The notes under the pieces: model-generated | What the model saw: the letters and a program-made list of their open reading frames with translations, nothing else | The model's database searches: none | What the model was told of the DNA's origin: nothing | Shown here: positions 13,961 to 54,829 of the stretch, piece after piece | How positions within the stretch are numbered: position 1 is the stretch's first letter | Layout of the letters: each line of letters begins with the position of its first letter | Assembly (NCBI RefSeq): GCF_014191255.1 | Contig: NZ_JACHWH010000017.1 | Span: forward strand, 1-64,000 | Length of the DNA: 64,000 nt | Direction: 5' to 3' | DNA from: Amycolatopsis bartoniae | GTDB lineage: Bacteria; Actinomycetota; Actinomycetes; Mycobacteriales; Pseudonocardiaceae | Program-made: the position numbers and the translations under genes

Positions 13961-13976
13961 TACGACAGAAGTCGTA
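13961..13976. promoter_or_regulatory. Second inverted repeat upstream of the ligJ promoter
   Basis: TACGAC-AGAA-GTCGTA, 6-bp perfect arms and a 4-base centre, sits 4 bases upstream of the operator-like palindrome. It could be an activator site for ligJ or belong to the divergent nuclease-like gene. Confidence 0.35.
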
Positions 13977-14021
13977 CGGCCACGGAGAGTGAGATCAGCC
14001 CCCTGGTGGGAGGCTTGGGAC

Positions 14022-14585: not shown

Positions 14586-14709
14586 CACACCTCCACCCAC
14601 CACCGCCGAGGTGAGCGGCGCCGCATCCGTCCGGGGGTGCCGCCTGGGAGAATGGTCGACCGGCAGGCGGGGCCGGCCCGCTTCCGTCGTTTCCGTCCCA
14701 GGAGAGCGA

Positions 14710-17010: not shown

Positions 17011-18369
17011 TTGTCCTCGTCAGCAACGGACTTTCGCCTTGCCGTACTGCCCGGAGGATGGGCTCGTGGCGAGAGCGAGAGCACCGATCACTGGCCCGAG
17101 TTCCTCCGGCAGGAACTCCTTTCGTTGATCCGGCGGTTCCCGGTCCCCGGTGCACAGCTGGCCGTGCGGCACCGCGGCACGCTCGTCGCCGCCGAAGCCG
17201 GGCTGGAGCACCACCCGCTCCGCCGGCCCATGCGCACCACCTCGACCGTTCCCGTCGGCTCCATCACCAAGGCCGTCACCGCGACGCTGGCCATGGTCCT
17301 CGTGGCCGAGGGCGACCTCGACCTGGACGCGCCGGTCGCGGACCTGGTCCCCGGACTGCGCGGCACCGCCGTGGGCGCGTCGGTGACCCCGCGCATGATG
17401 CTGCGGCACACCGGGGGACTCCCGTCGGACCCGGGCGAGCACTGCGCGCATCCCCGCGACCTGCTCGCCGAGCTGCGCCACGCGGTGCCGGTCTGCGCCC
17501 CCGGAACCGCGTTCTCCTACTCCAACGTCGGCTACGCGCTCCTCGGCATGATCGTCGAAGAGGTCACGGGCCTGTCGTGGCGGGAGGCCGTGGACGGCAT
17601 CGTGCTGCGCCCGCTGGGCGTGGACGCGGCGTTCGTCGGCGGTCCCGGCCCCGCGCCCACCGCGGCGGGGCACGCTGGCGTGCCAGGAGCCGGGCCGCGG
17701 GTCGTCGAGCAGGTGCTGCCGCCGGTGCTCGCCCCCGTGGGCGGGCTCGCGCTGAGCGCCCGCGACCTGGTCGCCTTCGGGGAGGCCCACCTGGGCAAAC
17801 CGGGGCTGCTCGACGTCGTCACGGCCGCGGAGATGCACACCGCGGGCGACGCCGAACCGTTCGGGCTCGCCGACGCGTGGGCGCTGGGACTGGCGTGCTT
17901 CCGCGGGTGGAACACCGAATGGCTCGGCCACGACGGCACCGCCGACGGCACCTCCTGCCACCTGCGCATCGACAAGACCGGCCAGACCGTCGTCGCGCTG
18001 ACCACCAACGCCGCCGGGGGCGCCGCGCTGTGGCGCGCGCTGCAGGCGGACCTGCGGAAGCTCGGCCTGCACCTGCCGGACTACCGGGCGCACGGCCAGC
18101 GCGCGCAGCGGGTTCCGGTGCCGGACGACTGCTTCGGCGCCTACCGCAACGGGGCACTGGAGTACGTCGTGGCACGCGGCGACGGCGAGGTGTGCCTCAC
18201 CGTCGACGGCGAAGTCCACCACGACCTCGTGCTCTACGACTGCGGCACGCTCTCCGTGCCCGACCCGGTCACCGGCAGGCACACCGACTGCGGCCGGATC
18301 GTCCGCGATCCCGGCACCGGCGAGGTGACGGCACTGCAGATCGGCGGCCGGCTGGCCCGGCGCGCCTGA
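17011..18369 (+). CDS. PBP-type thioesterase/peptide cyclase (SurE-like, stand-alone)
   Basis: A 452-residue serine hydrolase of the penicillin-binding-protein/class C beta-lactamase fold. The SxxK motif is SITK (Ser84, Lys87), the second motif is YSN (Tyr170, Asn172), and HDG (His307, Gly309) stands for the third. The last 90 residues look like the beta-rich lipocalin-type tail of this group. No signal peptide is present, so it acts in the cytosol. Length, motifs and place as first gene of an NRPS operon whose last module lacks a thioesterase match SurE, Ulm16, PenA and DsaJ. Those enzymes release peptides with a D C-terminal residue as head-to-tail macrocycles. The TTG start has GGAAGG 7 bases upstream. 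A generic beta-lactamase-like hydrolase is the alternative, but context argues against it. Confidence 0.82.
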
Positions 18370-18452
18370 GCACTTCCCGCACGGACATCCCTTTCCGCTC
18401 GCTCGGCTGGGCGCGGCGGTCTCCGACGCGCGCCCGAAAGGTTCGACGACCC

Positions 18453-20238
18453 ATGACACTCCAGGACACCGACAGACGCCCGCGTCCGGCGGCGGGCGAA
18501 AGCCCCTCACTGGCGGACCTGTTCACCCGGCAGGCGGCACGGACCCCGCACGCCGTCGCGGTCACCGGGGACACCACGGCACTGACCTACCGGGAGCTGG
18601 ACCTGCGCGCCAACCGGCTCGCGCACCGGTTGCTGCGCCTCGGGGTGCGGCCCGAGGACCGGGTCGGGCTGCTACTGGCACGTTCGGCCGAGCTCGTCGT
18701 CGCCGAGCTGGCGATCGTCAAGGCCGGTGGCGGGTACGTCCCGCTCGACGACCGCGCACCCGCCGGGCGGCTGCGTCACCTGCTGGCCGAGGCCGGGGTC
18801 CGGGTGCTGGTCAGCGACCGGGACCTGGCGGTGCCGGACGTCACCCGGCTGACGGCGGGCGATCCCGTGGACGAGCCGTCGACGACACCCGCGGTGCCGA
18901 TCTTCGGTGACCAGCTGGCGTACGTGATGTACACGTCGGGCTCGACCGGGGCACCGAAGGGCGTCGCGGTGCGTCACCGCGATGTCGCCGCGCTGGCGAC
19001 GGACCCACGCTTCGCCGGGCCGGCGCACCGCCGCGTGCTGCTGCACTCGGCCACGGCGTTCGACGCCTCGACGTACGAGCTCTGGGTGCCGCTGCTGCGC
19101 GGCGGCACCGTGGTGGTCGCGCCACCGGGTGAGCTCGGGGTCGCCGAGCTGCGTGAGGTGATCCGGAACCACCACGTGACGGCGCTGTGGCTGACCGCGG
19201 GGCTGTTCCGGGTGGTCGCGCAGGAGGCGCCGGGCTGCTTCCGCGGCGCCGCGGAGGTCTGGACCGGGGGAGACGTCGTACCGCCCGCGGCCGTCCGCCG
19301 GGTGCTGGAGTACTGCCCCGGCCTGGCCGTCGTCGACGGCTACGGGCCAACCGAGACCACGACGTTCGCCAGCACGCACCGCGTCGAGTCGCTCGCGGAC
19401 GTGCCGGACCCGCTGCCGATCGGGCGGGAGCTGGCCGGGATGTGGGCGCACGTGCTCGACGCGGCGCTGGACCCGGTGCCCGACGGTGAGCCGGGGGAGC
19501 TGCACCTCGCGGGCGCCGGGCTCTCGCGCGGGTACTGGGGACGGCCCGGGCTGACCGCGGACCGGTTCGTCGCCGATCCGGCCGGCCCGGCCGGGGAACG
19601 CATGTACCGCACCGGGGATGTCGTGCGCCGCAATGCCGCGGGTGAGCTGGAGTTCCTCGGCCGCCTCGACGACCAGGTCAAGATCCGGGGTTTCCGCGTG
19701 GAGCCCGGGGAGGTCGAGGCGGTGCTGCGCCGGCACCCGCGGGTGTCCGACGCCGTGGTGGTGACGCGCGAGGACCAGCCGGGCGTCAAGCGGCTGGTGG
19801 CCTACGCGGTCACCGCGCTGAGCCCGGCGGAGCTGCGGGACCTGGCCACCGCCGCGCTGCCCGGCTACCTCGTGCCGTCGGCCTTCGTGGTCGTCAACCG
19901 GTTTCCCTTGAACGCCAACGGCAAGGTCGACCGGCACGCGCTGCCCCGGCCGCCGGAGGAACACGAGCACGTCGAACCACGCACGGAGACCGAACGGCGG
20001 ATCGCGGAGATCTGGGCCGGTGTGCTGGGCGTCGAGCGGGTGGGCGCCGAGGACGACTTCTTCCGTCTCGGCGGGGACTCCATCCTCGGCGTGCAGGCGC
20101 TTTTCCGGCTGCGCAAGGCTTTCGGCGCGGATCTTTCGCCCAGGACGGTGTTCGACGCGCCGACGCCCGCGAAGCTCGCCCGGGTGATCGACGGGGAGCC
20201 GGAAGCCCCTCCCGCGGCGCCGATCCCCCGGGCCTCCG
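18453..20238 (+). other. NRPS module 1: A1(Val)-T1
   Basis: Initiation module with no condensation domain. Positions aligned by eye to the PheA template give the ten-residue code DAYWWGGTFK, a known valine code. T1 carries LGGDSI (Ser543). There is no E domain, so L-Val should become the peptide N-terminus with a free amine. Confidence 0.85.
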
Positions 20239-23200
20239 AGACGACAGTGCCGCTTTCCCCGGCGCAGCAACGACTGTGGTTCCTCGACGAACTGTCCGGC
20301 CGCGCCGCCGCCGAGTACAACACCGGCGTCGGGCTGCGCCTCTCCGGCCCGCTCGACCTCGACCGTCTCGCCGGCGCGCTCGGCGAGCTCCAGGCGCGGC
20401 ACGACTCACTGCGGACCGTCTTCGACGTCGTTGACGGGCAGGCGGTGCAGCGCACCACCGGCACCCCACCGATTCTCCTGCGATCAGTGTCTGGAGTGGA
20501 CGATCTCGACGACGAGATCGCGCGGGAGCTGGCCCGCCCCTTCGAACTGCGGCGGGGACCACTGACCCGCGCGACGGTGTTCCAGGTGGACACCGAGGAA
20601 CACCTGCTCGTGGTGTGCCAGCACCACATCGTCACCGACGGCCGGTCGGTGGCCGTGCTCACCGGCGAGCTGATGGCCCTCTACGCCGGAGAAGACCTGC
20701 CCGCCCTTCCCCTGCGGTACACGGACTTCGCCGTCTGGCACCGCGAGCACACGGGGGACGCGGAACTGCGGCCGCACCTGGAGTACTGGCGGCAGAAGCT
20801 CGGCGGCCTCGAACCGCTCGCGCTGCCGACCGACCGCCCGCGACCGCCGCGGCGCACCACCGCCGGTGCGGTGCACCGGCACCGCCTGCCGGAACCGCTG
20901 CCCGGCAGGCTCACCGAACTCGGCCACCGGCACGGCGCCACGCTGTTCATGACACTGACGGCCGCGGTCGGCGTCCTGCTGGCGCGCCACGCCGGGCAGG
21001 ACGACATCGCGCTCGGCACGGCGGTTTCCGGGCGCGACCGGGCCGAGCTGGCGGACCTGACCGGCTTCTTCGTCAACACCGTCGTGCTGCGCTCGCGGAT
21101 ACCGGACGAGCAGCCGTTCGCCGGGTTCCTCGACGGTTTCCGGGAGACCGTGCTGGAGGCGTTCGCCCACGCCGCGGCGCCGTTCGACCGCGTTGTCGAC
21201 GCGGTGCGGCCGCCACGCGACCCGTCCCGCACGCCGCTGGTCCAGGCCGTCGTCGTACTGCAGAACCCGTTGGTGCGCCCGCGGGAGGCCGCCGGGCTGC
21301 GGGTGTCCGAACAGGACCTGCCGCGCCCGTCCGCCCGGTTCGACCTGGTGGTGGAGTTCTGGCCGCGGGAGGGCACCTTCGAGGTCGCCGTCGAGTACAA
21401 CACCGACCTGTTCGACGTGACCACCGTCGAACGCCTTACGCGGCAGCTCGAAGTGCTGCTCACCGGCATCGCCGACGACCCCGCGACGAGCCTCGGCGAC
21501 CTGCCGCTGCTCACCGCGGAGGACCGGCGTTTCGTGCTTCAGGAAAGCGCTTCCAGCATCCGTCCGAACGCGACAGTTCCCGCGCGCTTCGCCGAACAGG
21601 CCGCCCGCACTCCCGACGCCACCGCCGTGCGTTGCGGCGATACCACGCTGACCTACCGCGAACTGCGGGCCCGGGCCGCCGGACTCGCGGCCCGGCTGCT
21701 CGCGCTCGGCGTGCGGCCCGAGGACCGGGTCGGGATCCTGATGGACCGCTCCCCGGACCTGGTCGTCGCCGTGCTCGCGGTGCTGTGGGCCGGTGCGGCC
21801 TACCTGCCCCTGGACCTGCGGGCCCCGGCCGGGCGGATGCGGCGCCTGCTGACGGGCTCGACGTTGTTGCTCACCGACGCGCGCTGGCAGACCGTGGCGG
21901 AGGACGTGCATCCGAACGCGGTGGTGGTGACGGACTTCGCCGCAGAGGCGCCGCCGGTGCGCCTCGATCCGGAGAACCTGGCGTACGTCGAGTACACCTC
22001 CGGCTCCACGGGCGAGCCGAAGGGCGTCGCCGTCCAGCACAGTGACGTCGTCGCACTGGCGTCGGACAGCCGTTTCGAGGGACACCGGCGGGTGCTGCTG
22101 CACAGCCCGCTGGCCTTCGACGCGTCCACCTACGAGCTGTGGGTGCCGCTGCTCAACGGCGGCGAGGTGGTCGTCGCCCCGCCCGGGGACCTCGACCCCG
22201 ACCGGCTGCGCGAGCTGATCACCCGGCACGGCGTGACCTCGCTCTGGCTCACCGCGGGCCTGTTCCGGCTGGTGGCGCAGGAGGCGCCCGAATGCTTGGC
22301 GGGGGTCCGGGAGGTCTGGACCGGGGGCGACGTGGTGCCGGCCGCCGCGGTGCGCCGGGTCCTCGACCGCTGTCCCGGGCTGGTGGTGGTCGACGGCTAC
22401 GGGCCGACCGAGACCACGACGTTCGCGACCTGCCACCGGATGGCGGCCGAGGTGCCGGAGAACGTGCCCATCGGCACGCCGCTCGACGGGATGCGCGCCT
22501 TCGTCCTGGACGCCCGGCTGCGGCCGGTGCCGCCGGGCGCGGTGGGGGAGCTGTACCTGGCGGGCGCGGGCCTCGCGCGCGGCTACTGGGACCGTCCCGG
22601 CGCCACGGCCGAACGGTTCCTGGCGAACCCGTTCGGCGAAGGCCGCATGTACCGGACCGGGGATCTCGTGCGGTGGCGTTCCGGCGGCACGCTCGAGTTC
22701 GCCGGCCGCGCCGACGACCAGGTCAAGATCCGCGGTTTCCGCGTGGAACCGGCCGAGGTCGAGGCCGCGCTCACCGCGCACCCCGCGGTGGCCGAGGCCG
22801 TCGTGCTGGCCCGCACGGACTCCGGGCACAAGCGGCTGGTGGCCTACGTCGTCGCGGAACCGGGCGCGGTGGCCGACCCGGCCGCGCTCCGGGCGTCGCT
22901 GGCCGGGGTGCTGCCCGACTACCTCGTGCCCGCGGCGGTCATCGTGCTGCCGTCTTTGCCGTTGAGCGCCAACGGAAAGGTCGACCGGCATGCGCTGCCG
23001 CAACCGCGGTTCGACGCCCCGGCCCGCCGGACGGCCCCGCGCACCGACGCCGAACGCGTGCTCGCCGGGATCTGGGCGGACGTGCTGGGCCTGCCCGGGG
23101 TCGGGGCCGAGGACAACTTCTTCGAGCTCGGCGGCGACTCGATCCTCAGCATCCAGGTCGCCGCCCGCGCCCGCCGCGCCGGGCTGGATCTCAGCACCGG

Positions 23201-26200
23201 CGACCTGTTCGAGCGCCAGACGATCGCCTCGCTCGCCGCCGGTGCCGCCGTGGCCCAGGAGAGGGCCGCCGCAGGGCCGGTGTCCGGGGAAGCGCCGCTC
23301 ACGCCGATCCAGCACTGGTTCTTCGCCACGCACACCCGTCCCGAGCGGTTCGACCAGACGCTGTCGGTCCAGCTGGCCGACGACGTGGACGAGGACGCGC
23401 TGCGTGCCGCGCTGGCCACGCTCGTGGAGCACCACGACGCGCTGCGGATGCGGTACGAGCGCAGGGACGGCGAGTGGCGGCAGGAGAACGCGCCCGTCGG
23501 TCCGGTTGTCCTCGATGGACAAGCGGACCTCGCGCACGGTCCGCTCCTGCGAGCACGATTGTCCGAAAAGGATGGACGCAGAACGCTCGAAATGGCGGCG
23601 CACCACCTCGTCGTGGACGGCGTGTCATGGCGGATCCTGCTGGAGGACCTGGAAGTGGCCTACCGGCGGGAGGCACTGCAGCCCCGGACGACGTCCTTCC
23701 TCGACTGGTCCCGCCGCCTGAGCGAATGCGCCGCGGCGGGCAGGTTCGACGACGAGCTGGAGCACTGGCGAGCGGTCACCGGCCACGCCTTGATCCCCGT
23801 GGACGGGAACGGCGCGAACACCGTCGGTGCGACCCGTACGGTCACCGCGCGGCTGAGTCCGGAAGAAACGAACGCGCTCCTGCGTGACGTGCCCGGCGTG
23901 TACCGGACGCAGGTCAACGACGTGCTGCTCACCGCCCTCGGCCGGGTCCTGTCCGACTGGACGGGCCACGAGCGCGTGCTGGTGGACCTCGAAGGCCACG
24001 GGCGCGAGGACCTGTTCGACGGCGTCGACACCTCGCGTACGGTGGGCTGGTTCACCAGTCTCTTCCCGGTGGCGCTGGAAGTTCCGCGCGAGTGGGGCCT
24101 GGCACTGAAGGCGGTCAAGGAGACGCTGCGGGCGGTGCCCCGGCGCGGGGTGGGTTACGGCGCGCTGCGCTACCTCACCGGCACGGCACCCGAGCTGTCC
24201 CCGGCGGTCAGCTTCAACTACCTCGGCCGGTTCGACGCTCCCGCAAGCCGCCTGTACGCGGGGCCGCCGAGCGAGCTGGCGCTGGACGCCGACCCGGCGG
24301 AGACCCGGCCGCACCTGCTCGACGTCGTCGGCCGGATCGAGGACGGCGCGCTGGAGTTCGGCTGGTTCTTCGCCGACGGCGTGCACCACGAGAGCACGGT
24401 CACCGCGCTTGCCGGCGCGATGCTCGACGCGCTGCGCGGCATCCTCCACCACTGCGCCGAACCGGGCGCGGGCGGCCGGACACCCTCGGACTTCCCGCTG
24501 GCGACGCTCACCCAGTCCCAAGTGGACACCATCGTCGGGAACGGGCGGAACGTTGAGGACATCTACCCGCTGACGCCGATGCAGACCGGCATGGTCTTCC
24601 ACGGCCTCGCTGAGCGGGACAGCCGCCTGTACTTCGAGCAGCTGAGCTTCGTGGTCGAAGGCGTCGAGGACATTCGGGCGTTCGCCGAAGCCTGGCAACG
24701 CGTGGTCGACCGGACTCCGGTGCTGCGGACCCGCATCGTGTGGGAGGGCGTGTCCGAGCCGCTCCAGGTCGTCGAACGGCACGTGACGCTTCCGATCAGC
24801 CTCTCCGAGGAACCGGACGACGAAGAAACCTTCCGGCTCGATCGCGCACCCTTGCTGCGGCTCAGGCTGGTCGGCCTGCCGGACTCGTGCTTCCGTGTCG
24901 TGTGGACGTTCCACCACGTCCTCCTCGACGGCTGGAGCGTCTTCCAGGTCCTGTCCGACGTCGCCGCGCTCACGCGGGGTGACGCGGTGCCCGAACGGCG
25001 GCCCTTCCGCGACTACTTGGCCTGGCTGGCGCGGCAGGACGACGGCCTCGCCGAGGCGCACTGGCGGGCGGAGCTGGCGGGACTGTCCGCACCGACCCCG
25101 TTGCCGTATGACCGGGTGCCTGCTCACAGCCACCGCTCCGCCTCCGCCGAGCGCGTCACGACAGAGCTGGACGAGGCGGACTCGCAGCGGCTGTACGAGT
25201 TCGCGAAACGTCACCGCCTGACGGTGAACGCCGTGGTGCAGGGCGCGTGGGCGTTGCTGCTGTCCCGGTACAGCGGAGATCGCGAAGTCTGCTTCGGAGC
25301 GACGGTTTCCGGTCGCCCACCGGAACTGTCCGGAGTGGACGAGATCCCGGGCATCTTCATCAACACCGTCCCGGTGCGGGTGCCGGTCGGCGGCGCGGAG
25401 GTGGCCGGCTGGTTGCGGCAGCTGCAGGCCGGGCAGGTGGGGTCGCGGCGGTTCGGGCACCTGCCGCTGACGCGGCTGCAGGGCTGGAGCGGGGTGCCCG
25501 CCGGAACGAACCTGTTCGACAGCATTGTGGTGTTCGAGAACTACCCGGTCGGCGAGCTCGGCGGCGGCATGCGGGTGCGGGACCTGGAGGCGGCGGAACG
25601 GACGAACTATCCGCTGCACCTCCTGGCGTACCCGGGCCGCACGGTGTCGTTCGTGCTCGGCTACGACCCGGACCTCTTCGACGCGCCGACCGCCGAGCGG
25701 CTCGCCGCGCACTTCGGCGTCCTCCTGCGCGGGCTGACCGAAAACGGGCCGGTGTCGGGCGTGCCGATGCTCACCCCCGCCGAGGAGGACCTCGTCCTGC
25801 GGAAGTGGAACGAGACGAGCACCGAGCTGCCCCGGGCCGCGCTGCCGGACCTGTTCGGCGCCCAGGTCCGCCGCACCCCGGACGCGGTCGCACTGGTCAC
25901 CGACGGCGAGTCGGTCACCTACGCGGAGCTCGACGTCCGCGCCAACCGGCTCGCACACCTGGTGCTGCGGCACGGAATTCGCGCCGAGGAACGAGTCGCG
26001 GTGCTGATGGACCGGTCGATCGATCTCGTCGTCGCGGAGCTGGCGATCGTCAAGGCCGGCGGCGCGTATCTGCCGCTGGATCTGCGGGCGCCGGAATCCC
26101 GGTTGAAGTCCCTGATCGCCGGAGCCGGGGCGCGAATCCTCGTCACCGACCACGCATGGCGAGACGTTGCGCGAACCGTCCACCACGGACTCGTCGTGGA

Positions 26201-29200
26201 GGTGGCCGCAGAGGGACCGGACACCGCCCCGGACGTGCGGGTCGATCCCGACCAGCTGGCCTACGTCACCTACACGTCGGGTTCGACGGGGACACCGAAG
26301 GGCGTGGCGGTGCGGCAGCGGGACGTGGTGGCGCTGGCGTGGGAGCACCGGTTCAGCGCGCACGACCGGATTCTGTTGCATTCGCCGCACTCGTTCGATG
26401 CCAACACCTACGAGATGTGGGTGCCGTTGCTGTCCGGCGGCTGTGTGGTCGTGGCCCCGCCCGGGGAACTGGCCGTCGACACGGTCGCCCGGATGATCGC
26501 CGAATACGGCGTCACGGGAGCGTTCGTCACCTCCGGGTTGTTCCGCCTGGTCTCCCAGGAGGCCCCGGAAGCGTTCACCGGGCTGCGGGAGGTGTGGACG
26601 GGCGGCGACGCGGTGCCCGCCACGGCGTTGCGCCGGGTGCTCGAAGCGTGCCCGGGTATCGCGGTGGCCGACGTGTACGGGCCGACGGAGACGACAACCT
26701 TCGCCACGGTGCGGGTGATGACCGACGAGGTGCCGGAGGTGGTGCCGATCGGGGCGCCGCTGGACAACGTGCGCGCCTACGTCCTCGACGACACCCTGCG
26801 CCTGGTGCCGCCCGGTGTGCCCGGCGAACTGCACCTCGCGGGCGAGGGCCTCGCACGCGGCTACCTGAACAGCCCGGGGCTCACCGCCGACCGGTTCGTC
26901 GCCGACCCCTTCGAGCCGGGGGAGCGCATGTACCGCACGGGCGACGTCGTGCGGTGGAACGCCGAAGGACAGCTGGAGTTCGTCGGCCGGGTGGACGAGC
27001 AGGTCAAGATCCGCGGCTTCCGCGTCGAACTGAGCGAGGTCGAGGCGGCGCTCGGCCAGTACTGCACGCAGGCGGCCGTGGTCGCGCGTGAGGACGACGG
27101 CGTGAAACGGCTCGTCGCCTACGTGGTGGGCGGGGCCGACCCGGCCCAGCTGCGGGAGGCACTGAGCCGGGACCTGCCCGACTATCTGGTGCCCGCGGCC
27201 TTCGTCGCCCTCGACCGGCTGCCGCTCACGGTCAACGGCAAGGTCGACCGGCAGTCCCTGCCCGCGCCCGAGTTCGGCACCCGCGAGTACGTGGCACCGC
27301 GGCCCGGACCGGAGACGGTGCTCGCGGAGATCTGGGCCGAGGTGCTCGGCGTGCCCGAGGTCGGTGCCGAGGACGACTTCTTCGCCCTCGGCGGGGACTC
27401 GATCCTCAGCATCCAGGTCGTCTCCCGCGCCCGGCGGGCGGGACTGGACCTGACACCCGGCGACCTGTTCACCCATCCCACCGTCGCCGAGCTGGCCGCC
27501 GCGACGAGGACCACCGAGCCGGCGCCGGAGCGGGGACCGGTCAGCGGCGAGGTGCCGCTCACCCCGATCCAGCGCTGGTTCTTCGAGACGCAGACCCGGG
27601 AACCGGACCACTTCACGCAGCGGATGCGGGTGCGGCTGCCCGGTCCGGCCGACCCGGCGGCCCTGCGCACCGCGCTGGCCGCCCTCGTCGCACACCACGA
27701 CGCCCTGCGGATGCGGTTCACGCCCACCGCCGACGGGTGGCGGCAGGAGAACGCCGCCGAGGAGCGGGCCGACCTGCTGCGGGCACCGCTGGACCTCACG
27801 AACGGGCCGTTGCTGCACGCCGAACTGTCCACTGAGGACGAGTTGACATTGACCGTGCACCACCTCGTCGTGGACGGCGTGTCGTGGCGGATCCTGCTGG
27901 AGGACTTCGACAAGGCGTACTCCCAGGCGCTGCGCGGAGAACCGGTGGACCTCGGCCCGCGCACCACGTCGTTCCAGGACTGGGCACGCAGGTTGGTCGC
28001 CCACACCGCCGAAGGCGGGTTCGACGACGAGCTGGATCACTGGCGGGCCACCACCGGGCACGTGGGCATCCCCACCGACGGGGACGGGCCGAACATCGTG
28101 GAGTCGCTGCGCTCGGTCACCGTACGGCTGACCCGCGAGGAGACCGCCGCCCTGTTGAGGGAAGTGCCGGACGCCTACCGCACGCAGGTCAACGACGTGC
28201 TGCTGACTGCGCTCGGCCGCGTGCTGCGCGACTGGACGGGCCACGAGCGGGTGCTGGTGGACCTCGAAGGGCACGGGCGCGAGGAGCTGTTCGACGGGGT
28301 CGACCTCTCCCGCACCATCGGCTGGTTCACCAGCGTCTTCCCCGTCTCGCTCGCGGTGCCCGGCGACTGGGGAGACGCGCTCAAGGCGGTCAAGGAACAG
28401 GTGCGCGCGGTGCCCCGGCGCGGCGTCGGCTACAGCGCGCTGCGCTACCTCGCGGGAACCGCACCCGAGATCACGCCGCAGGTCGCCCTGAACTACCTGG
28501 GGCGCTTCGAGTCCGGCGGCCTGGAGTCGGACGACAGCCCGCTCTCGGCCCGCGCGCACCTGCTGGACGTCGTCGGCCGCGTTGAGGACGACGAGCTGGA
28601 ACTGACCTGGTACTACGCCGAAGGCGTGCACCGGGAGGCCACCGTCGCCGCGTTGGCCGAGGCACTGGCCGGTGTGCTCCGGGAGATCATCGAGCACTGC
28701 GCCCGCCCGGAGTCGTGGGGCCGCACCCCGTCGGACTTCCCGCTCGCCCGGCTCGACCAGGACACTGTGGACAGTCTGGCCGACCCGGTGGTGGAGGACA
28801 TCTACCCGCTCACGCCGATGCAGTCCGGCATGGTCTTCCACTCGCTGTCGCAGGGCGAGGAACGCGTGTACTTCCAGCAGGTCGCGTTCACCCTCGACGG
28901 CGTCACCGATCCCGGGGCGCTCGCGGCGGCCTGGCAGCGGGTGGTCGACCGCACGCCGGTGCTGCGCAGCCGGATCGTGTGGGAAGGCGTGCCGGAACCC
29001 GTGCAGGTGGTGCGGCGCGACGTCGTCGTGCCGGTGACCCAGCACGACTGGCGTTCGCTGCCGGAGGACGAGCAGGACGCCGCGTGGCGCGAGGTCCTCG
29101 ACCGCGACCGGGCCGCCGGGCTCGACCTCACGGCCACGCCGTTGCTGCGCCTGGTGTTCGCCCGGCTGTCCGGCACCGAGGTGCGTGTGCTGTGGACGTT

Positions 29201-32200
29201 CCACCACGTGCTGCTCGACGGCTGGAGCGTGTTCGCCGTGCTGTCCGACGTCTTCGCCGCCCACGCCGGGCAGGCGCCACCGCGGCGCAGGCCGTTCCGC
29301 GACTACGCGGCCTGGTTGGCGCGGCAGGACGACCGGCAGGCCGAACGGCACTGGCGGACCGTGCTCGGCGACCTCACCGCCCCCGCGCGGCTGCCGTTCG
29401 ACCGCCCGCCCGCGCAGGCGCACACCAGCCGGTCGGCGGACTGGCTGACCGTGGAGCTGGACGAGCGCGAGACCGCGCGGCTGCGTGACAGCGCGCGTGC
29501 CTCGGGCCTGACGCTCAACACGCTGCTGCAAGGCGCGTGGGCGGTCCTGCTCGCGCGGTCCACCGGAGAGCGGGACATCTGCTTCGGCACCACGGTTTCC
29601 GGGCGTCCGGCGGACCTGCCCGGCGCCGACGACATCGCGGGCATCTTCATCAACACCCTGCCCGTGCGCGTTTCCGTGGACGACTCCCGTTCGCGCGGCG
29701 AGTGGCTGCGGGAGTTGCAGGCCGGGCAGGTGGAGTCGCGGCGGTTCGGGCACCTGCCGCTGACGCGGCTGCAGGGCTGGAGCGGTGTGCCGTCCGGAAC
29801 GAACCTGTTCGACAGCATCGTGGTGTTCGAGAACTATCCGATCAACGACGAAGCCGCCACCGCCCACGGCCTGCGGCTGCGGGCGCTCGACGCGGTCGAG
29901 ACGACGAACTACCCGCTCAGCGTGGTCGCGTCACCGGGGGAGCGGCTGTCGGTCGACGTCGGCTACGACCCGGACCTGTTCGACGGGACCACCGCCCGCC
30001 GGATCGCCAGGCAGCTCACCGACGTGCTGCGGAGCCTCGGCGAGGAGCCCGCCCGGCCGCTCGGGGAGATCGACCTGCTCACCGCCGCCGAGCGGCACCA
30101 GGTGCTCACCGAGTGGAACGACACCGCCTCGCCGGTACCGGACGGCACGCTCGCCGAGCTGTTCGCCGACCAGGTGCGGCGGACTCCGGACGCGCCCGCG
30201 GTGGTCGCCGACGGCGTCCGGCTGAGCTACGCCGAGCTCGACGCCCGCGCCGAGCAGCTGGCGCGGCGGCTGGACCTCGACGCCGAGGACCTGGTCGCGG
30301 TGCTGATGGACCGCTCGCCCGACCTGCTCGTCGCGGAGCTGGCAATCGTCAAGGCCGGCGGGGCGTACCTGCCGCTGGACCTGCGGGCGCCGGAACCCCG
30401 GTTGAAGACCCTGCTGGCCGGAACCCGCGCGCTGATCACCGACCGGAAGTGGGAGCCCGTCGCCCGGCGGGTCCACAGTGGACCGATCCTGCTGGCCGAC
30501 GGTCCTTCCGCGCCCACCCGGCCGTTCCCCGCGGTGCACCGCGACAACCTGGCGTACGTCATGTACACGTCGGGTTCGACGGGGACGCCGAAGGGCGTGG
30601 CGGTGCGGCAACGCGATGTGGTGGCGCTGGCGCACGAGCGCCGGTTCCACGCCCACGACCGAATCCTGCTGCACTCGCCGCATTCGTTCGACGCCAACAC
30701 CTACGAGATGTGGGTGCCGTTGCTGTCCGGCGGCTGCGTGGTCGTGGCCCCGCCCGGCGAACTCGACGTGGAGACCCTCGCGCGGGTGATCGCGGAACAC
30801 CGGGTCACCGCGGCCTTCCTCACCACGGGCCTGTTCCGGCTGGTGTCCCAGGAGAACCCGGCGGCGTTCACCGGCCTGCGAGAGGTCTGGACCGGTGGCG
30901 ACGCCGTGCCCGCGACGGCGTTGCGCCGGGTACTGGAGGCGTGCCCGGGTATCGCGGTGGCCGACGTGTACGGGCCGACGGAGACGACGACCTTCGCGAC
31001 CGTGCGGGTGATGACCGGTGAGGTGCCGGAGGTGGTGCCGATCGGGGCGCCGCTGGACAACATGCGCGCCTACGTCCTCGACACTGCGCTGCGGCTGGTC
31101 CCGCCGGGGGTGCCGGGAGAGCTGCACCTCGCCGGGGAAGGGCTGGCCCGGGGTTACCTGAACAGCCCGGGGCTGACCGCTGACCGGTTCGTCGCCGACC
31201 CCTTCGAGCCGGGGGAGCGCATGTACCGCACGGGCGACCTCGTGCGGTGGAACCCCGAGGGACAGTTGGAGTTCGTCGGCCGCGTCGACGAGCAGGTCAA
31301 GATCCGCGGCTTCCGCATCGAGCCCAGCGAGATCGAGGCAGCACTCGGGCAGTACTGCACGCAGGCGGCCGTGGTCGCGCGTGAGGACGATGGCGTCAAA
31401 CGGCTCGTCGCCTACGTGGTCGGCGGTGCCGAACCGGCGCAGCTGCGGGAAGCGCTGAGCCGGGACCTGCCCGACTATCTGGTGCCCGCCGCGTTTGTGC
31501 CGCTCGACCGGTTTCCGCTCACGGTCAACGGCAAGCTCGACCAGGCCGCGCTACCCGCACCGGACTTCACGCGGGTCACCGGCGAGCTGACCCCGCCGCG
31601 CACCGACGCCGAGCGCACGCTGGCCGCGATCTGGACCGACGTGCTCGGCGTGCCCGAGGTCGGCACCGAGTCCGACTTCTTCGCCCTCGGCGGGGACTCG
31701 ATCGTCAGCATCCAGGTCGTCTCCCGCGCCCGCCAGGCGGGGCTGCACCTGCTGCCGCGGGACCTGTTCCGCCATCCCACGCTCGGCCCGCTCGCCGCGG
31801 CGGCCGAGGGGCCGGCCGGCCCGCTCGCCGAGCAGGGCCCGGTGACCGGACCGGTGCCGCTGACCCCCATCCAGCGCTGGTTCTTCACCGATCCGCCCCG
31901 GCGGTTCGACCAGTCGGTGCTGGTGGAGCTGGCCGAGGACGTCGACGAGGACGCCCTGCGGGCCGCGCTGGCCGCGGTGCTGGCACACCACGACGCCCTG
32001 CGGATGCGCTTCGACGACTCCGGCGGCGAGTGGACCCAGGACAACGCGCCCGTCACGCCGGTGGACGTCCTGGGCAACCGCGACTTCGACCTGCGCACCG
32101 GCCCGCTGCTGGCCGCGACCCTGTCCGGCACGCGGCTGCGCCTGACCGCGCACCACCTCGTCGTCGACGGGGTGTCGTGGCGGATCCTGTTGGAGGACCT

Positions 32201-35200
32201 CGAAACCGCGTACCGGGGCGGCGATCTCGGGCCGAAGACGACGTCGTTCCGGTCGTGGGCGCTGCGGCTCGCCGACCACACCGCGGCCGGCGGGTTCGAC
32301 GACGAGCTGCCGCACTGGCGAGCCGTGCCGCGCCCGGCCCCGCTTCCGCTGGATCGCCAAGGCGACAACACGATCGGCTCGACGGAGGAGGTCACCGTCC
32401 GGCTCGACCCCGGGCGGACGAAGGCACTGCTGCAGGACGTGCCGGAGGTCTACCGGACGCAGGTCAACGACGTGCTGCTCGCCGCGCTCGGCCGGGTGCT
32501 CGGCGACTGGACGGGCCACGAGCAGGTGGTGGTCGACCTCGAAGGCCACGGGCGCGAGGACCTGTTCGACGACGTGGACACCTCCCGCACGGTGGGCTGG
32601 TTCACCAGCGTGTTCCCGGTGGCGCTGGAGGTGCCGCGGGAGTGGGGCGCCGCGCTGAAGTCCGTCAAGGAACGGCTGCGCGCCATCCCGCGGCGCGGCG
32701 TGGGCTACGGCGCCCTGCGCTACCTCGCCGGCTCGGTGCCCGGCCTCGACTCGCCGGTGAGCTTCAACTACCTGGGCCGCTTCGACTGGCAGCTCGGCGG
32801 GCTCTACCGGGCCAACCACGGCCTCGATGCCGATGTGGACCCGGCCGCGGCCCGGCCGCACGTCCTCGACGTCGTCGCCAGGGTCGAGCAGGAGGCGCTG
32901 GAGATCTCCTGGTCGTACTCGGCGAACCTGCACGATCGGTCCACTGTGGAGCGTCTCGCCGTGGCGTTCCTCGACGCGCTCGGCGAGATCCTGCACCACT
33001 GCGCCGAGCCGGGCGCGGGCGGCCGGACGCCGTCGGACTTCCCGCTCGTGCGCCTGGACCAGTCGCAAGTGGACCGGTTGGCGGGCGACGGCCGCGGCGT
33101 GGAGGACCTCTACCCGCTCACGCCCATGCAGGGCGGGATGGTGTTCCACGGTCTGTCCCAGGCCGACCGGGGCCTGTACTTCGAGCAGGCCACGTTCGTG
33201 CTCGACGGCGTCACCGATCCGGCGGAGCTGGGCCGCGCGTGGCAGCGGGTGCTCGACCGGACCCCGGTCCTGCGCACCGCCTTCGTGTGGGACGGCGTGC
33301 CGGAACCGGTGCAGGTCGTGCACCGCGACGTCGCCCTGCCGGTCCGCCACCTCGACTGGACCGGCCTCGGCGACGCCGAGCGGGCCGCGCACCTGCGGCA
33401 GCTGCTGGCCGAGGACCGGGCGCGGGGCCTGGACCTCACCGTCGCGCCGCTGATGCGCGTCGCACTGGCCCGGCTCTCGGCGACCGAGGTCCAGGTGCTG
33501 TGGACCTTCCACCACGTGCTGCTCGACGGCTGGAGCGTGTTCGGGGTCCTGGCCGACCTGTGCGCCGCGCAGGCCGGCGGCCCGCTGCCCGAGCGCCGCC
33601 CCTTCCGCGACTACCTGGCCTGGCTCGACGGGCGCGACGAAGCCGAGGCCGAACGGTTCTGGCGGCGCACCCTCGACGGGTTCGCCGACCCGGTCCCGCT
33701 GCCGTACGACCGGGCGCCGGCGGAGAACCACACGACGTGCTCCGCGACTTGGCTGCCGTGCTCGCTCGGCGAGGAGGAGACCGCCCGGCTGGAGGAGTTC
33801 GCCCGGCGGCACGGGCTCACGCTCAACGTCGTGCTCCAGGGCGCGTGGGCGCTGCTGCTGTCGGTCTACAGTGGACGCCGCGATGTGGTGTTCGGCGCGA
33901 CCGTCTCGGGCAGGCCCGCCGAACTGCCCGGAGTCGACGAGATCCTCGGCATCTTCATCAACACCCTGCCGGTGCGGGTGCGCCTCGACCGGACCGCGCG
34001 CGTCGCCCGCTGGCTCAAGACCCTGCAGGAAGCGCAGGCCGAGGCACGCGGGTTCGACTTCGTCCCGCTCGCGCGGCTGCAGACGTGGACGGACGTCCCG
34101 GGCGGGGTGAACCTGTTCGACAGCCTGGTGGTGTTCGAGAACTACCCGATCCGCGACGAGGCGGCGGCCGGGCACGGGCTGCGGATCCGCGACCTCGCGG
34201 CGGCCGAGACCACCAACTTCCCGGTCACCGTCGTCGCCTCGCCGGGCCGCCGCCTGTCGGTCGAGGTCGGCTACGACCCGGAGCTGTTCGAGCCCGCCAC
34301 GGTCGAAGCGCTGGCCGCGCGCCTGCTTCGCCTGCTGGCCGAGCTGTCCGCGGACGGCGAACGGCCGCTGGGCGAGGTGCCGCTGCTCAGCGACACCGAA
34401 CGGCGGCAGCTACGGGACTGGCAGACCACCGCCCCCGAACCGGCGGCGCGGTCGCTGCCCGGGCTGTTCGCCGAACGGGTCCGGGCGCAGCCGGACGCGG
34501 TCGCGGTGGTGGCCGGGCACGAGCGGGTGAGCTACGCCGAGCTAAACCGGCGGGCGAACCGCCTGGCCGCCCGGCTGCTGGCGCTCGGGCTGCGGCCGGA
34601 GGACCGGGTCGGCCTCGCGCTCGAACGCTCCGCCGCCGTGGTGGTGGCCGAGCTGGCCGTCGCGAAGGCCGGCGGGGTCTCCGTGCCGCTGGACACCCGG
34701 GCGCCGGTGGGCCGGCTGCGCCTGCTCCTGGCGGGCGTCCCGTTCGCGATCACCGACGAGACCTGGCTGAGCACGCTCGAACAAATCCACAGTGGACGGA
34801 TACTCACCGAGTCCCGGGTGCGGGGCGAACCGCCACGCGACCCCGGGGTGCGGGTGGACCCCGACCAGCTGGCCTACGTCATGTACACGTCGGGCTCCAC
34901 GGGCGTGCCGAAGGGCGTGGCGGTCCGGCACCGCGACGTCGCCGCGCTCGCGGCCGACAGCCGGTTCGCCGGCGGCGCGCACGAACGGGTGCTGCTGCAC
35001 TCGCCGCTCGCGTTCGACGCCACCACCTACGAGGTCTGGGTTCCGCTGCTGGGCGGCGGCCGGGTGGTCGTCGCGCCGCCGGGAGACGTGGACGCCGCGC
35101 TCGTGCGCCAGGCCGTCACCGGCGAGGGCGTGACCGCGCTCTGGCTCACCGCCGGCCTGTTCCGGGTGCTCGCCCAGGAGTCGCCGGACTGCTTCGCGGG

Positions 35201-36221
35201 TCTGCGTGAGCTGTGGACCGGCGGTGACGTGGTGCCCGCCGACGCCGTGCGGCGCGTGCTGCGCAGCTGTCCCGGGCTGCGGGTCGTGGACGGCTACGGC
35301 CCGACCGAGACGACCACCTTCGCCACGTCGCGGCCGATGGCGGATCCGGACGCCGTGCCCGCCGTGGTGCCGATCGGCCGCCCGCTCGACGGCGTCCGCG
35401 TCCAGGTGCTCGGCCCGGACCTGGCCCCGGTGCCGCCCGGCGTGGCCGGGGAGCTGTGCCTCGCCGGCGCCGGGCTCGCCCGCGGCTACTCCGGCGCGCC
35501 CGGGCTGACCGCGGAACGGTTCGTCGCCGATCCCTGCCGGCCAGGGGAACGCCTGTACCGCACCGGCGACCTCGCGGCGTGGACGGCCGACGGCGAGGTG
35601 CGGTTCCTCGGCCGCCTCGACGAGCAGGTCAAGCTGCGTGGTTTCCGGATCGAACCGGGCGAGGTCGAGGCGGCGCTGGCCGCGCACCCGCGGGTGGCGC
35701 AGGCGGCCGTCGTGGTCCGCGAGGACCAGCCCGGCGCGAAACTGCTCGCCGCCTACCTGGTGGCGGACGGGCAGGCACCCGGCGCGGACGAGCTGAAAGC
35801 GTTCCTCAGCCGTACCCTGCCGGACTACCTCGTGCCGTCCGCGTACGTGGTGCTCGACCGGTTGCCCTTGAGCGGCAATGGAAAGCTCGACCGGCAGGCG
35901 TTGCCCGCGCCCGGCCTCACCGCCGCGCGCCCGGCCTACGCCGAGCCGCGGACCGACACCGAGCGCACCGTCGCGCGCATCTGGGCCGACGTGCTCGGAG
36001 TCGCGCGGGTTGGTGTCGACGACGACTTCTTCGACCTGGGCGGCGACTCCCTCCGCGGCGTCCAGATCGCGTCCCAGGCGAGCGCGGTGTTCGACATCCG
36101 GCTCACCCCGCGGGACGTGCTGACCGCCCGGACCGTGGCCACCTTCGCCGAAACCGTCGAGGAGACGATCCTGCGTGATCTCGAGCTCCTCGCCGCCGGT
36201 GACCCGAACGCAGAACTGTGA
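18453..36221 (+). CDS. Nonribosomal peptide synthetase, modules 1-5 (A-T, CATE, CATE, CATE, CAT)
   Basis: A 5922-residue NRPS starting directly with an adenylation domain. Landmarks (A core Asp / T serine / C or E HH): A1 204, T1 543; C2 724, A2 1223, T2 1563, E2 1717; C3 2154, A3 2649, T3 2983, E3 3136; C4 3584, A4 4080, T4 4416, E4 4567; C5 5020, A5 5522, T5 5866. C2 reads HHIVTDG (LCL type), while C3, C4 and C5, each after an E domain, read HHVLLDGWS (DCL type), so stereochemistry and domain types agree. Codes give Val, D-Val, D-Ile-like, D-Ile-like, Val. GAAAGG precedes the ATG at 18453. The open frame runs back to 16965, but that part overlaps the cyclase gene in another frame and has no NRPS sequence. 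The stop overlaps the first possible start of the second NRPS. The acidic C-terminal tail may dock with it. Confidence 0.95.
20239..24549 (+). other. NRPS module 2: C2-A2(Val)-T2-E2
   Basis: C2 is LCL-type. The A2 code is again DAYWWGGTFK (Val). T2 is [12 protein letters not shown]2 has an intact [10 protein letters not shown] at residues 1717 onward. Predicted residue: D-Val. Confidence 0.85.
24550..28790 (+). other. NRPS module 3: C3-A3(Ile-like)-T3-E3
   Basis: C3 is DCL-type (HHVLLDGWS). The A3 code is DAYFWGVTFK, of the large branched aliphatic group and closest to Ile codes such as DAFFLGVTFK. E3 is intact ([10 protein letters not shown]). Predicted residue: D-allo-Ile if L-Ile is loaded; Val cannot be excluded. 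Confidence 0.75.
28791..33098 (+). other. NRPS module 4: C4-A4(Ile-like)-T4-E4
   Basis: Close relative of module 3 with the identical code DAYFWGVTFK, a DCL-type C domain and an intact E4. Predicted residue: D-allo-Ile. Patches of near-identical DNA are shared with module 3 at an offset of about 4293 bases. Confidence 0.75.
33099..36221 (+). other. NRPS module 5: C5-A5(Val)-T5
   Basis: C5 is DCL-type (HHVLLDGWS). The A5 code is DAYWWGGTFK (Val). T5 is [11 protein letters not shown], without an E domain. Predicted residue: L-Val. The C-terminal tail after T5 is short and acidic ([16 protein letters not shown]), a possible docking helix. Confidence 0.85.
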
Positions 36222-36232
36222 GGACCTCCGTC

Positions 36233-51138
<14,906 letters not shown>

Positions 51139-51142
<4 letters not shown>

Positions 51143-52389
51143 CCACGTTGCTTTCGCGCAACCGCGACTACCGCCTGCTGTGGGGCGGGCAGGTGTTCTC
51201 CGAGACCGGGTTCAGCACGTCCATGATCGCGTTCCCGCTGCTGGTGCTGGCCGTCACCGGGTCGGCGGCGCAGTCCGGCCTGGTGCTCGGCGCCGTCGCG
51301 GTGGCCCAGCTGGTGGCCGGGCTGCCCGCCGGGGCGCTGGTGGACCGCTGGAACCGCAAGCGGATCATGCTGGTCTGCGAGGCGGTGCAGGCGCTCGCGG
51401 CGGCCTCCCTGCTCGCCGCGTTGTGGTGGGGCGTGGCGAGCGTGCTGCAACTGGTCGCCGTCGCCGCGGTGATGGGCCTGTGCCGCGCGCTGTTCGAACC
51501 CGCCGAAGAAGCCAGCCTGCCGCGCCTGGTCACCGTCGAACAGGTGCCCTCGGCGGTGGCGATGAACGCGGCGCGGTCCAACGCCGGCCAGCTGTCGGGC
51601 ACCGCGCTCGGCGGGTTCCTCTTCGCGCTCGGCCGGGCGATACCGTTCGTCTTCGACGTGCTCACCCACGTGGTGGCGTTCTTCGCGCTGCTGTTCGTCC
51701 GGCTGCCGGTGGCGGTGACCGAACGGGCCCCCGCCCGGCACCTGGGCCGCGAGATCCTCGCCGGGCTGCGGTGGGTGTGGCACCAGCCGCAGGTGCGGGT
51801 CACCGCGCTGTGCGCGATCAGCCTGAACCTGTTCTTCAGCGCCTACTACCTGGTGATCATCGTGCTCGCGGCCACGCGCGGCGTGCCCTCGGGCGAGATC
51901 GGCGTGATGGCGGCCATGCTCGGCGGCGGAGGCATCCTCGGCGCGCTGGCGGCGCCGTACCTGCACCGCAGGTTCAGCCCGTACACGCTGATCATCGGCG
52001 TGTTCTGGGCGCTGACCGTGCTCACCCCGCTCGCCGTGTTCGTCAGGAGTGGCTACCTGATGGGCGTGCTGTTCGCGGCGATGGCGTTCCTGCCGCCCGC
52101 GGCCAACACGACGATCAGCACCTACCAGCTGCTGCTCACCCCGGACGGGATGCGTGGCAGGCTCGGCGGAGTCCTCGGCGTCGCCGGCGGGGTGGCGGCC
52201 GCGGCCGGACCCGCGCTCGGCGGCTGGCTGGTCGACGCGCTGCCCGGCACCACCGCCGTGCTGGTGTGCGCCGGGGCGATCACGGTCGTCACCCTGCTGG
52301 CGACCTGCCACCCCGTGCTCCGCCGCTTCCCCCGGACCCTCGAACCCGAACCGGAGTTCGCCGACAGGAAAGGAAATCCCGATGGATGA
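51139..52389 (+). CDS. MFS exporter of the NRPS cluster
   Basis: A 416-residue major facilitator with about 12 helices, of the EntS/MFS_3 type common beside NRPS genes. The start [20 protein letters not shown] and the loop [15 protein letters not shown] after helix 2 are characteristic. Its ATG overlaps the NRPS 2 stop (ATGA) and its end overlaps the MbtH start by 8 bases, so it is co-translated with the synthetase. Most likely it exports the finished peptide and may give self-protection; direction and substrate are inferred from family and context. Confidence 0.85.
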
Positions 52390-52588
52390 GGACGGCACCT
52401 TCCAGGTACTGGTCAACGACGAGGAGCAGTACTCGCTGTGGCCCGCGGACAAGGAGGTCCCGGCGGGCTGGCGGCCCGACGGCACGCGCGGCACGCGGCA
52501 GGAGTGCATGGACCACGTCGACCGGGTGTGGACCGACATGCGCCCGCGGAGCCTCCGGGAGCGGATGGCAGCCGAGCACCAGGGCTGA
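52382..52588 (+). CDS. MbtH-like protein
   Basis: A 68-residue protein with the full MbtH signature: NDEEQYSLWP, VPAGW, then the conserved C-terminal block ECMDHVDRVWTDMRP. MbtH proteins bind adenylation domains and are needed for their folding or activity, so this one should serve the nine A domains encoded just upstream. AGGAAAGG precedes the ATG, which lies inside the end of the exporter gene. It is the last gene of the operon. It is too short to be anything but a stand-alone MbtH. Confidence 0.95.
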   Translation: MDEDGTFQVLVNDEEQYSLWPADKEVPAGWRPDGTRGTRQECMDHVDRVWTDMRPRSLRERMAAEHQG

Positions 52589-54643: not shown

Positions 54644-54829
54644 GCTTGAATTCCTCTCTACGTACGGGTGGGCCGTCAGCTCGCACCGCTGCGGGTTCTG
54701 AGGTGGCTCCTGGCGAGGACAGCGCCGACGTGGTGAACCGGCGTTCATGAGGAGGCGATCCCACAGCCAGGGGCCGCCTCAGGTTCCGCTACTCGCACCG
54801 GCAAGCAGGCTGATTCCAGTGGTCATTTC

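What the first reader, a model, noticed from the sequence alone, without database searches (positions are those of the whole stretch)
17011..52588. Compact five-gene operon for a predicted cationic cyclic nonapeptide
Seen: PBP-type hydrolase, two NRPSs with nine modules, exporter and MbtH, nearly all overlapping or closely spaced. Codes read by eye give L-Val, D-Val, D-allo-Ile, D-allo-Ile, L-Val, basic, D-allo-Thr, basic, D-Asn. Every C-domain type agrees with the presence or absence of the upstream E domain, an internal check on the stereochemistry. Known: SurE-type cyclases close such chains head to tail. Inference: an amphipathic, doubly cationic cyclic nonapeptide. I do not recall a described product with this sequence, but I could not search.
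Basis: partly seen in the sequence, partly recalled or inferred. Interest (0 to 1): 0.85.

Follow-up and report, generated by a model that had tools for sequence, protein, structure and literature searches.

The report
Operon for a cationic cyclic nonapeptide
A high-GC bacterium carries a five-gene assembly line that is predicted to build a small ring-shaped peptide of nine amino acids, two of them positively charged; the type of pathway is known, I found no described product, and related bacteria carry the same line with one or two building blocks exchanged.

Summary
Window 17011-52588 (+) is a compact five-gene operon: a PBP-type (SurE-like) stand-alone cyclase, two NRPSs with nine modules, an MFS exporter and an MbtH-like protein. 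One caution: modules 3 and 4 (DAYFWGVTFK) may load Val instead of Ile. Two basic residues are supported; Arg, Lys and Orn are not separated.

Best reading: head-to-tail cyclo(L-Val, D-Val, D-allo-Ile/Val, D-allo-Ile/Val, L-Val, L-basic, D-allo-Thr, L-basic, D-Asn), closed between D-Asn9 and L-Val1.

Beyond the finding: 18 of 48 related loci that I fetched have the same nine-module order, with cyclase and MFS in 18 of 18 and MbtH in 16 (the other two stretches end before it). The hydrophobic half is nearly frozen. Residue 9 varies, and residue 7 changed from Thr to Asn in two of the 18, apparently by copying the module 9 A core into module 7 (97-100% identical along most of the copied stretch in one).

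So this is a new member of a known kind, SurE-type cyclic peptides; its interest is the orphan family with visible natural A-core exchange. My ten searches found no such product in print.

The parts
17011..18369 (+). PBP-type (SurE-like) stand-alone peptide cyclase, 452 aa; Ser84-x-x-Lys87, YSN (Asn172) and GHDG (His307) motifs
   Evidence: Pfam Beta-lactamase 4.2e-53; PDB best matches Ulm16 8fek 4.8e-58 and SurE 6ksu 5.4e-58, the latter over residues 38-451; motif alignment with SurE and 18 relatives; residue numbers
18453..36221 (+). NRPS1, 5922 aa, modules 1-5: A-T, C-A-T-E, C-A-T-E, C-A-T-E, C-A-T
18453..20237 (+). module 1 (A-T, no C domain): DAYWWGGTFK, predicted L-Val
   Evidence: boundary from Pfam C2 start
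20238..24491 (+). module 2 (LCL-A-T-E): DAYWWGGTFK, predicted D-Val
24552..28739 (+). module 3 (DCL-A-T-E): DAYFWGVTFK, predicted D-allo-Ile or D-Val
28791..33017 (+). module 4 (DCL-A-T-E): DAYFWGVTFK, predicted D-allo-Ile or D-Val
33102..36218 (+). module 5 (DCL-A-T): DAYWWGGTFK, predicted L-Val
36218..51142 (+). NRPS2, 4974 aa, modules 6-9: C-A-T, C-A-T-E, C-A-T, C-A-T-E; no terminal TE
36359..39346 (+). module 6 (LCL-A-T): DTEDMGYVDK, predicted L-basic (Arg, Lys or Orn type)
   Evidence: PMC10522769 passages; G131 code at the same position
39347..43699 (+). module 7 (LCL-A-T-E): DFWNVGMVHK, predicted D-allo-Thr
   Evidence: same code listed as Thr in PMC9113097
43784..46870 (+). module 8 (DCL-A-T): DTEDLGYVDK, predicted L-basic
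46871..51139 (+). module 9 (LCL-A-T-E): DLTKVGEVGK, predicted D-Asn, the ring-closing residue; E motif HHLVIDT, EGHGR present
   Evidence: Asn code recalled
51139..52389 (+). MFS exporter, 416 aa
   Evidence: Pfam MFS_1 9.3e-33; NCBIfam below cut-off to H+ antiporter and EntS models
52382..52588 (+). MbtH-like protein, 68 aa
   Evidence: Pfam MbtH 4.5e-24

Best explanation
The five genes are one transcription unit for a nonribosomal head-to-tail cyclic nonapeptide. NRPS1 starts on L-Val with a free amine (module 1 has no C domain) and builds L-Val, D-Val, D-allo-Ile/Val, D-allo-Ile/Val, L-Val. NRPS2 adds L-basic, D-allo-Thr, L-basic, D-Asn. The MbtH-like protein assists the A domains. The chain ends on an E-containing module without a TE domain, so the stand-alone PBP-type cyclase takes it onto its Ser84 and closes the ring between the D-Asn9 carboxyl and the L-Val1 amine. 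The MFS protein exports the product. Shown: genes, domains, codes, stereo pattern, conservation of the set. Inferred: joint transcription, substrates, cyclisation, export. Not known: activity; a membrane- or envelope-directed antibacterial role is a guess from the amphipathic, doubly cationic make-up.
For: Gene order and overlaps. The PBP protein matches the solved cyclases Ulm16 and SurE best (4.8e-58, 5.4e-58), the next match being 1.7e-25. Start with L and end with D is the rule for PBP-type TEs (PMC11735501 passages). E/C logic holds for all eight C domains here and for 142 of 143 in 18 relatives. The same nine-module order sits behind the homologous cyclase in 18 of 48 fetched loci. In these 18 the cyclase is just upstream and the MFS just downstream in 18 of 18 (two MFS cut by the end of the stretch), and MbtH is there in 16 of 18, the other two stretches ending before it. 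Of 13 flanking window proteins, only one has a strong match in any of the 18 stretches, so the conserved unit looks like these five genes. Basic residues: acids in the pocket; Glu at code position 3 binds the cationic side chain in PosA (PMC10522769 passages); independent Arg/Orn/Lys code at positions 6 and 8 of G131.
Against: No product, transcript or enzyme assay. DAYFWGVTFK is tabulated as Val in PMC9113097, so residues 3 and 4 may be D-Val. At A6 and A8 the stretch after FDTSWE is shorter than in A1: an ungapped reading gives E at position 239, the MAFFT columns give W. E9 has HHLVIDT where the other four E domains have HHLV(V/M)DG; the nine same-order relatives have HHLV(I/V)DA there, so it looks tolerated. 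No promoter-like or terminator-like site was found at either end, but the scan does not cover all promoter types. The flank test is partial: beyond MbtH more than 8 kb was seen in only 4 of the 18 (G015, G183, G032, G054), and in G032 the acyl-CoA carboxylase-like gene of the window's left flank lies about 3 kb past MbtH (77% identity over 1824 residues). Tailoring genes elsewhere in the genome were not looked for.
Confidence: 0.78

Rival explanations
1. Same pathway, but the final molecule is further changed: residues 6 and 8 are loaded or modified as capreomycidine, enduracididine, N-hydroxyarginine or Orn through enzymes encoded elsewhere, so it is not a plain Arg/Lys nonapeptide.
For: SurE-type pathways do use modified basic residues: N5-hydroxyarginine in pentaminomycins and D-capreomycidine in cyclofaulknamycin. 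The A6/A8 code does not separate them.
Against: No tailoring gene among the five, and the 18 same-order relatives were found to share only these five next to each other (flanks seen in part).
Confidence: 0.2
2. The product is released as a linear or partly hydrolysed nonapeptide, because the PBP-type protein acts mainly as a hydrolase on this chain.
For: PBP-type TEs can hydrolyse (PenA on a tetrapeptide, cyclisation to hydrolysis 1:2.7, PMC11735501 passages).
Against: Closest solved homologues are cyclases; L-start and D-end match the ring-closing rule; motif residues are present.
Confidence: 0.08
3. A siderophore-type peptide: MFS exporter of EntS type plus MbtH, with hydroxy-Orn at the basic positions.
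For: The MFS protein has a sub-threshold match to the enterobactin exporter EntS; MbtH is common in siderophore clusters (recalled).
Against: No ornithine N-oxygenase or iron uptake gene among the window genes annotated; the 18 relatives were found to share only the five genes.
Confidence: 0.04
4. The cluster is silent or decaying and makes nothing.
For: None of the other 18 genomes searched in its genus has a close cyclase homologue, so the operon is isolated in its genus.
Against: Two giant reading frames of 5922 and 4974 codons are intact and nine T domains keep GGDS; order is conserved against relatives at 50-68% cyclase identity.
Confidence: 0.06

Closest known systems
Surugamide pathway and its cyclase SurE (PDB 6KSU)
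   Same: Stand-alone PBP-type cyclase with two domains; acts in trans; L-residue at the start, D-residue at the end; ring closed head to tail (PMC11735501 passages).
   Different: Surugamides are octa- and decapeptides; here nine residues, two basic ones in a B-x-B-x end, D-Asn as ring-closing residue.
Ulleungmycin cyclase Ulm16 (PDB 8FEK)
   Same: Best PDB match of the window's cyclase (4.8e-58); same release logic.
   Different: Ulleungmycin is a cyclic hexapeptide (recalled).
Cyclofaulknamycin (flk) cluster with FlkO
   Same: PBP-type cyclase, MbtH, an Arg-type residue; code DLAESGAVDK recurs in the window's relative G131 at positions 6 and 8.
   Different: Six modules and an arginine hydroxylase gene (vioC homologue) in the cluster; D-allo-Thr as native last residue. 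The window operon has no tailoring gene.
Pentaminomycin / BE-18257 (PenA)
   Same: PBP-type cyclase, Arg-derived residue, L-start and D-end.
   Different: Pentapeptides; two NRPSs make two different products (abstract in the listing); here two NRPSs make one chain.
Xinghamide A, a cyclic nonapeptide of Streptomyces
   Same: Cyclic nonapeptide with three Val and one Thr.
   Different: Phe, Thr, Glu, 3 Val, 3 Pro, all L, no basic residue (PMC10608500 passages).

Membership tests
PBP-type thioesterase (SurE family) | Sequence relation to solved PBP-type cyclases over both domains | tested here: met
   SurE 6ksu 5.4e-58 over query residues 38-451 of 452; Ulm16 8fek 4.8e-58 in two pieces
PBP-type thioesterase (SurE family) | Catalytic Ser, His, Asn, Lys | tested here: met
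   GSITK, FSYSN, WLGHDG align with SurE GSVTK, FSYSN, WYGHDG. Which Asn is the catalytic one was not checked; the Asn of FSYSN is Ser in G015, G183 and G131 and Thr in G019
PBP-type thioesterase (SurE family) | Acts in trans on an NRPS that lacks a terminal TE | tested here: met
   Separate gene directly upstream; NRPS2 ends in an E domain, no TE
PBP-type thioesterase (SurE family) | Substrate starts with an L- and ends with a D-residue | tested here: met
   Module 1 without E, module 9 with E; configuration itself not measured
PBP-type thioesterase (SurE family) | Head-to-tail macrolactam formation | not testable with these tools
   needs enzyme assay or product
Known characterised SurE-type product | Same module order and product described | tested here: inconclusive
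   10 paper searches showed none in the rows listed; MIBiG and subscription papers not searched
NRPS siderophore | Ornithine N-oxygenase or catechol genes with iron uptake genes | tested here: not met
   none among the window genes annotated; the rest of the genome was not searched for them

The most novel reading that the evidence does not exclude
The window shows one member of an undescribed family of doubly cationic, PBP-TE-cyclised nonapeptides that evolves as a natural combinatorial scaffold: the hydrophobic half (Val, D-Val, D-Ile/Val, D-Ile/Val, Val) and the two basic residues stay nearly fixed, while residues 7 and 9, the ring-closing one included, are exchanged by recombination of A-domain cores, with the cyclase tolerating the change.
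Probability: 0.55. Interest if true: 0.6.

Novelty: new member of a known kind. Interest (0 to 1): 0.42.

Why it matters
SurE-type cyclases are sought as tools for peptide ring closure (PMC11735501 passages). This family offers a set of cyclases whose natural substrates differ mainly at the ring-closing residue, and cationic amphipathic rings are a plausible source of antibacterial activity. The A-core copies (module 9 into module 7) are worked examples of the kind of swap that NRPS engineering tries to imitate. That recombination shapes NRPS genes is already known (PMC8097286, seen in the search listing only).

Tried and rejected
Cyclase pocket versus last residue: I tested whether the residue after SurE Gly235 follows the module 9 code (numbering assumes a 20-residue tag on 6KSU, recalled). 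Of 42 lines with a readable last code, Gly was in 9 of 12 Asn lines and 0 of 30 other lines (8 of 50 rows dropped for no or unreadable last code: SurE, G131, G019, G719, G080, G002, G055, G029). The Fisher p of 5e-7 ignores ancestry; the Gly cases fall into two groups of relatives, and three Asn lines (G693, G717, G224) have Ala. I do not claim co-evolution.

Clean operon borders: a first comparison (7 flanking proteins, 18 loci of which nine same-order ones, rows of four queries under 40% identity dropped) suggested that nothing flanking is shared. A fuller one (13 flanking proteins, 18 same-order relatives, no identity filter, E <= 1e-5) found one strong match, the carboxylase gene near the operon in G032, besides weak hits at 24-32% in G032, G717 and G693. 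I softened the claim.

Exact substrate of the DAL..GAV.K modules in relatives: the letter at 278 differed between my alignments of the same domain, so I assign nothing beyond 'not Asn'.

The A6/A8 code in print: exact codes gave one paper, which holds only DAYFWGVTFK; shorter strings gave nothing usable. Calibration against pathways of known product by a SurE search of 246 class genomes gave 4 genomes, none identified. Plasmids: one Streptomyces nigrescens hit at 42%, not followed. Host name: kinship labels are anonymous; a family like Pseudonocardiaceae is my guess only. No structure prediction was run.
Full report
OBSERVATION. The window lies at G000:C17:1-64000 of a 7.76 Mb, 23-contig genome; G+C is 69-75% in 4-kb steps. 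Five genes run on the + strand: PBP-type hydrolase 17011-18369, NRPS1 18453-36221, NRPS2 36218-51142, MFS 51139-52389, MbtH 52382-52588. Three of the four junctions overlap (GTGA, ATGA, 8 bases); the fourth is a gap of 83 bases. The TTG start of the hydrolase has GGAAGG a few bases upstream, but the same-order relatives listed align only from about residue 24-39 on, so the exact start is uncertain.

DOMAINS AND STEREO LOGIC. Pfam finds Condensation, AMP-binding and PP-binding domains and no thioesterase in modules 1-4 and in NRPS2 (module 5 not in that scan). C and E positions are, nine LGGDS carrier motifs. E domains sit in modules 2, 3, 4, 7 and 9. C domains after an E carry HHVLLDG (C3, C4, C5, C8); the others carry HHIVTDG (C2, C6, C7, C9). 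In 18 relatives, types called with HMMs trained on the window agree with the upstream E domain in 142 of 143 C domains; the exception is in G131. Many of these relatives share the architecture, so the 143 are not independent.

SUBSTRATES. A1, A2, A5 DAYWWGGTFK and A7 DFWNVGMVHK are listed as Val and Thr in PMC9113097 (passages). A9 DLTKVGEVGK is Asn-type by recalled codes. A6 DTEDMGYVDK and A8 DTEDLGYVDK have three acids beyond the amine-binding Asp if read ungapped; an alignment that opens a gap reads W instead of E at 239. In PosA a Glu at that code position binds the side-chain amine of Orn or Lys (PMC10522769 passages). Stronger is G131: its modules 6 and 8 carry DLAESGAVDK (the last letter of the second copy reads P in the alignment), listed as Arg, Orn, Lys in PMC8399532, whose product holds capreomycidine. 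So positions 6 and 8 are basic by two different codes; Arg, Lys and Orn are not separated.

CYCLASE. PDB best matches are Ulm16 (4.8e-58) and SurE (5.4e-58); the next, IS11, is at 1.7e-25. Ser84-x-x-Lys87, FSYSN and WLGHDG align with SurE. PBP-type TEs close rings between an N-terminal L- and a C-terminal D-residue (PMC11735501 passages). Module 1 (no C, no E) and module 9 (E) fit. E9 of the window has HHLVIDT and EGHGR; the nine same-order relatives have Ala in place of the last Gly; EGHGR was printed for six of them and ELPGR (perhaps an earlier chance match of my pattern) for G054, G085 and G157.

DISTRIBUTION. Cyclase homologues at E <= 1e-40: 100 of 297 genomes of the same family, own genome included. 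At E <= 1e-100 in a class sample: 1 of 394, the own genome. In the own genus only the own genome of 19 has a close homologue; two others match at 4.6e-31 and 6.9e-31. In genus g16: 25 of 80 at E <= 1e-105. I read 48 relative loci, G224 counting twice: 18 among the strongest hits, 20 further ones and 10 of the 25. The same nine-module order is present in 18 of 48: 16 exactly by script, plus G157 (an extra NRPS frame in the flank) and G693 (NRPS2 in two frames). G719 agrees as far as its contig goes; G080, G002 and G029 are cut by contig ends. Of the 18, 17 lie in genus g16 and one (G032) in g32. The isolation of the operon in its own genus suggests transfer or repeated loss; this was not tested further.

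BORDERS. In the 18, cyclase and MFS are next to the NRPSs in 18 of 18, MbtH in 16 of 18 (G223 and G214 stretches end before it). Of 13 flanking window proteins, one has a strong match in the 18 stretches: the 1874-residue carboxylase-like protein (window 4788-10412), at 77% over 1824 residues in G032, about 3 kb beyond MbtH and in the opposite direction. In the window it lies 6.6 kb upstream, in the same direction. So window and G032 may share a chromosomal neighbourhood with the operon turned round; other hits are weak (24-32%). Beyond MbtH, more than 8 kb was seen in only 4 of 18.

VARIATION. In the 18, A1 and A2 are DAYWWGGTFK, A3 DAYFWGVTFK and A6 DT(E/W)DMGYVDK in every case; A4 is DAYFWGVTFK or DAYFWGGTFK; A8 departs from DT(E/W)D(M/L)GYVDK only in G223 and G272. 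Module 9 is Asn-type in 6 of 18 (G015, G183, G032, G722, G693, G717) and different in 12. Module 7 is Thr-type in 16 of 18 and Asn-type in G032 and G722. Against the window, A9 of G054, G085, G157, G223, G214 and G272 is 49-52% identical while C9, T9 and E9 are 62-71%. In G032, module 7 is 92-100% identical to its own module 9 over nine 40-residue steps of the A core (97-100% in eight of them), while its E domain is nearer to the window's module 7; in G722 module 7 is 75-90% identical to its own module 9 over the A core and only 25-62% to its sister G183 in the pocket part, but mostly 80-97% outside (whole A7 versus own A9 89% and 78%). G717 and G693 have an Asn A9 whose core is nearest to the other Asn lines (72-78%), while C7, A7, E7 and E9 are nearest to lines with the other residue; C9 hardly discriminates (76 versus 75%). 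So A cores are exchanged and copied between modules. That recombination drives NRPS evolution is known (PMC8097286, search listing only).

WIDER GROUP. Other relatives behind homologous cyclases have nine modules in another order (G123, G224, G245, G051, G276: Ile/Val, D-Val, D-Thr, Val, D-Val or D-Ile, basic, D-x, basic, D-Asn) or eight modules with up to three basic-type codes (e.g. G240, G295, G172, G215, G195). These readings rest on codes only.

KNOWN OR NEW. Papers seen: passages of PMC11735501, PMC9113097, PMC7565604, PMC11253843, PMC10522769, PMC12662965 and PMC8399532; outline with abstract, and passages, of PMC10608500; PMC7827011 and PMC8097286 in listings only. Ten searches showed no product with this sequence among the rows listed. 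Xinghamide A is unrelated. The library lacks most subscription journals and MIBiG could not be searched, so the product may be in print elsewhere.

VERDICT. It is a new member of a known kind; the added value is the orphan family and its A-core exchange.

Noticed in passing
G032 and G722 loci (L022-L024; L062-L063), NRPS2 module 7: A core of module 7 looks replaced by a copy of the same line's module 9 A core (Thr to Asn), apparently twice independently.
   Followed up: yes
window 4788-10412 and G032 stretch L022-L024: A single 1874-residue protein with biotin carboxylase, biotin carrier, ACC_central and carboxyl transferase stretches lies 6.6 kb upstream of the operon here; a 77% identical one lies about 3 kb past the operon in G032, turned round. 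A shared neighbourhood with an inversion, or a preferred site, is possible.
   Followed up: partly
G015 and G183 loci (L016, L019), cyclase: The YSN motif of the cyclase reads YSS here, although the window and most relatives aligned have YSN; G131 has YSS and G019 YST.
   Followed up: no
window 14637-16624: ECF-type transporter directly upstream of the operon: ATPase 14637-16010 and CbiQ-like permease 16007-16624, overlapping; the substrate component may be 13947-14585 (no Pfam match).
   Followed up: partly
window 52646-63919: Carbohydrate-use island: GH31, sugar ABC permeases (one of 717 aa with the permease domain at its end), LacI regulator, GH3 with CBM6, GH92.
   Followed up: no
G000:C18:52633-76914 and G000:C1:795429-815056: Two further large NRPS loci in the same genome, seen as Condensation-domain hits.
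   Followed up: no
G240, G295, G172, G215, G195, G278, G088 and others (L042-L045, L052-L053, L092-L093, L102-L103, L108-L109, L118-L119): Eight-module relatives with up to three basic-type codes behind a homologous cyclase, a further group of predicted cationic cyclic octapeptides.
   Followed up: partly
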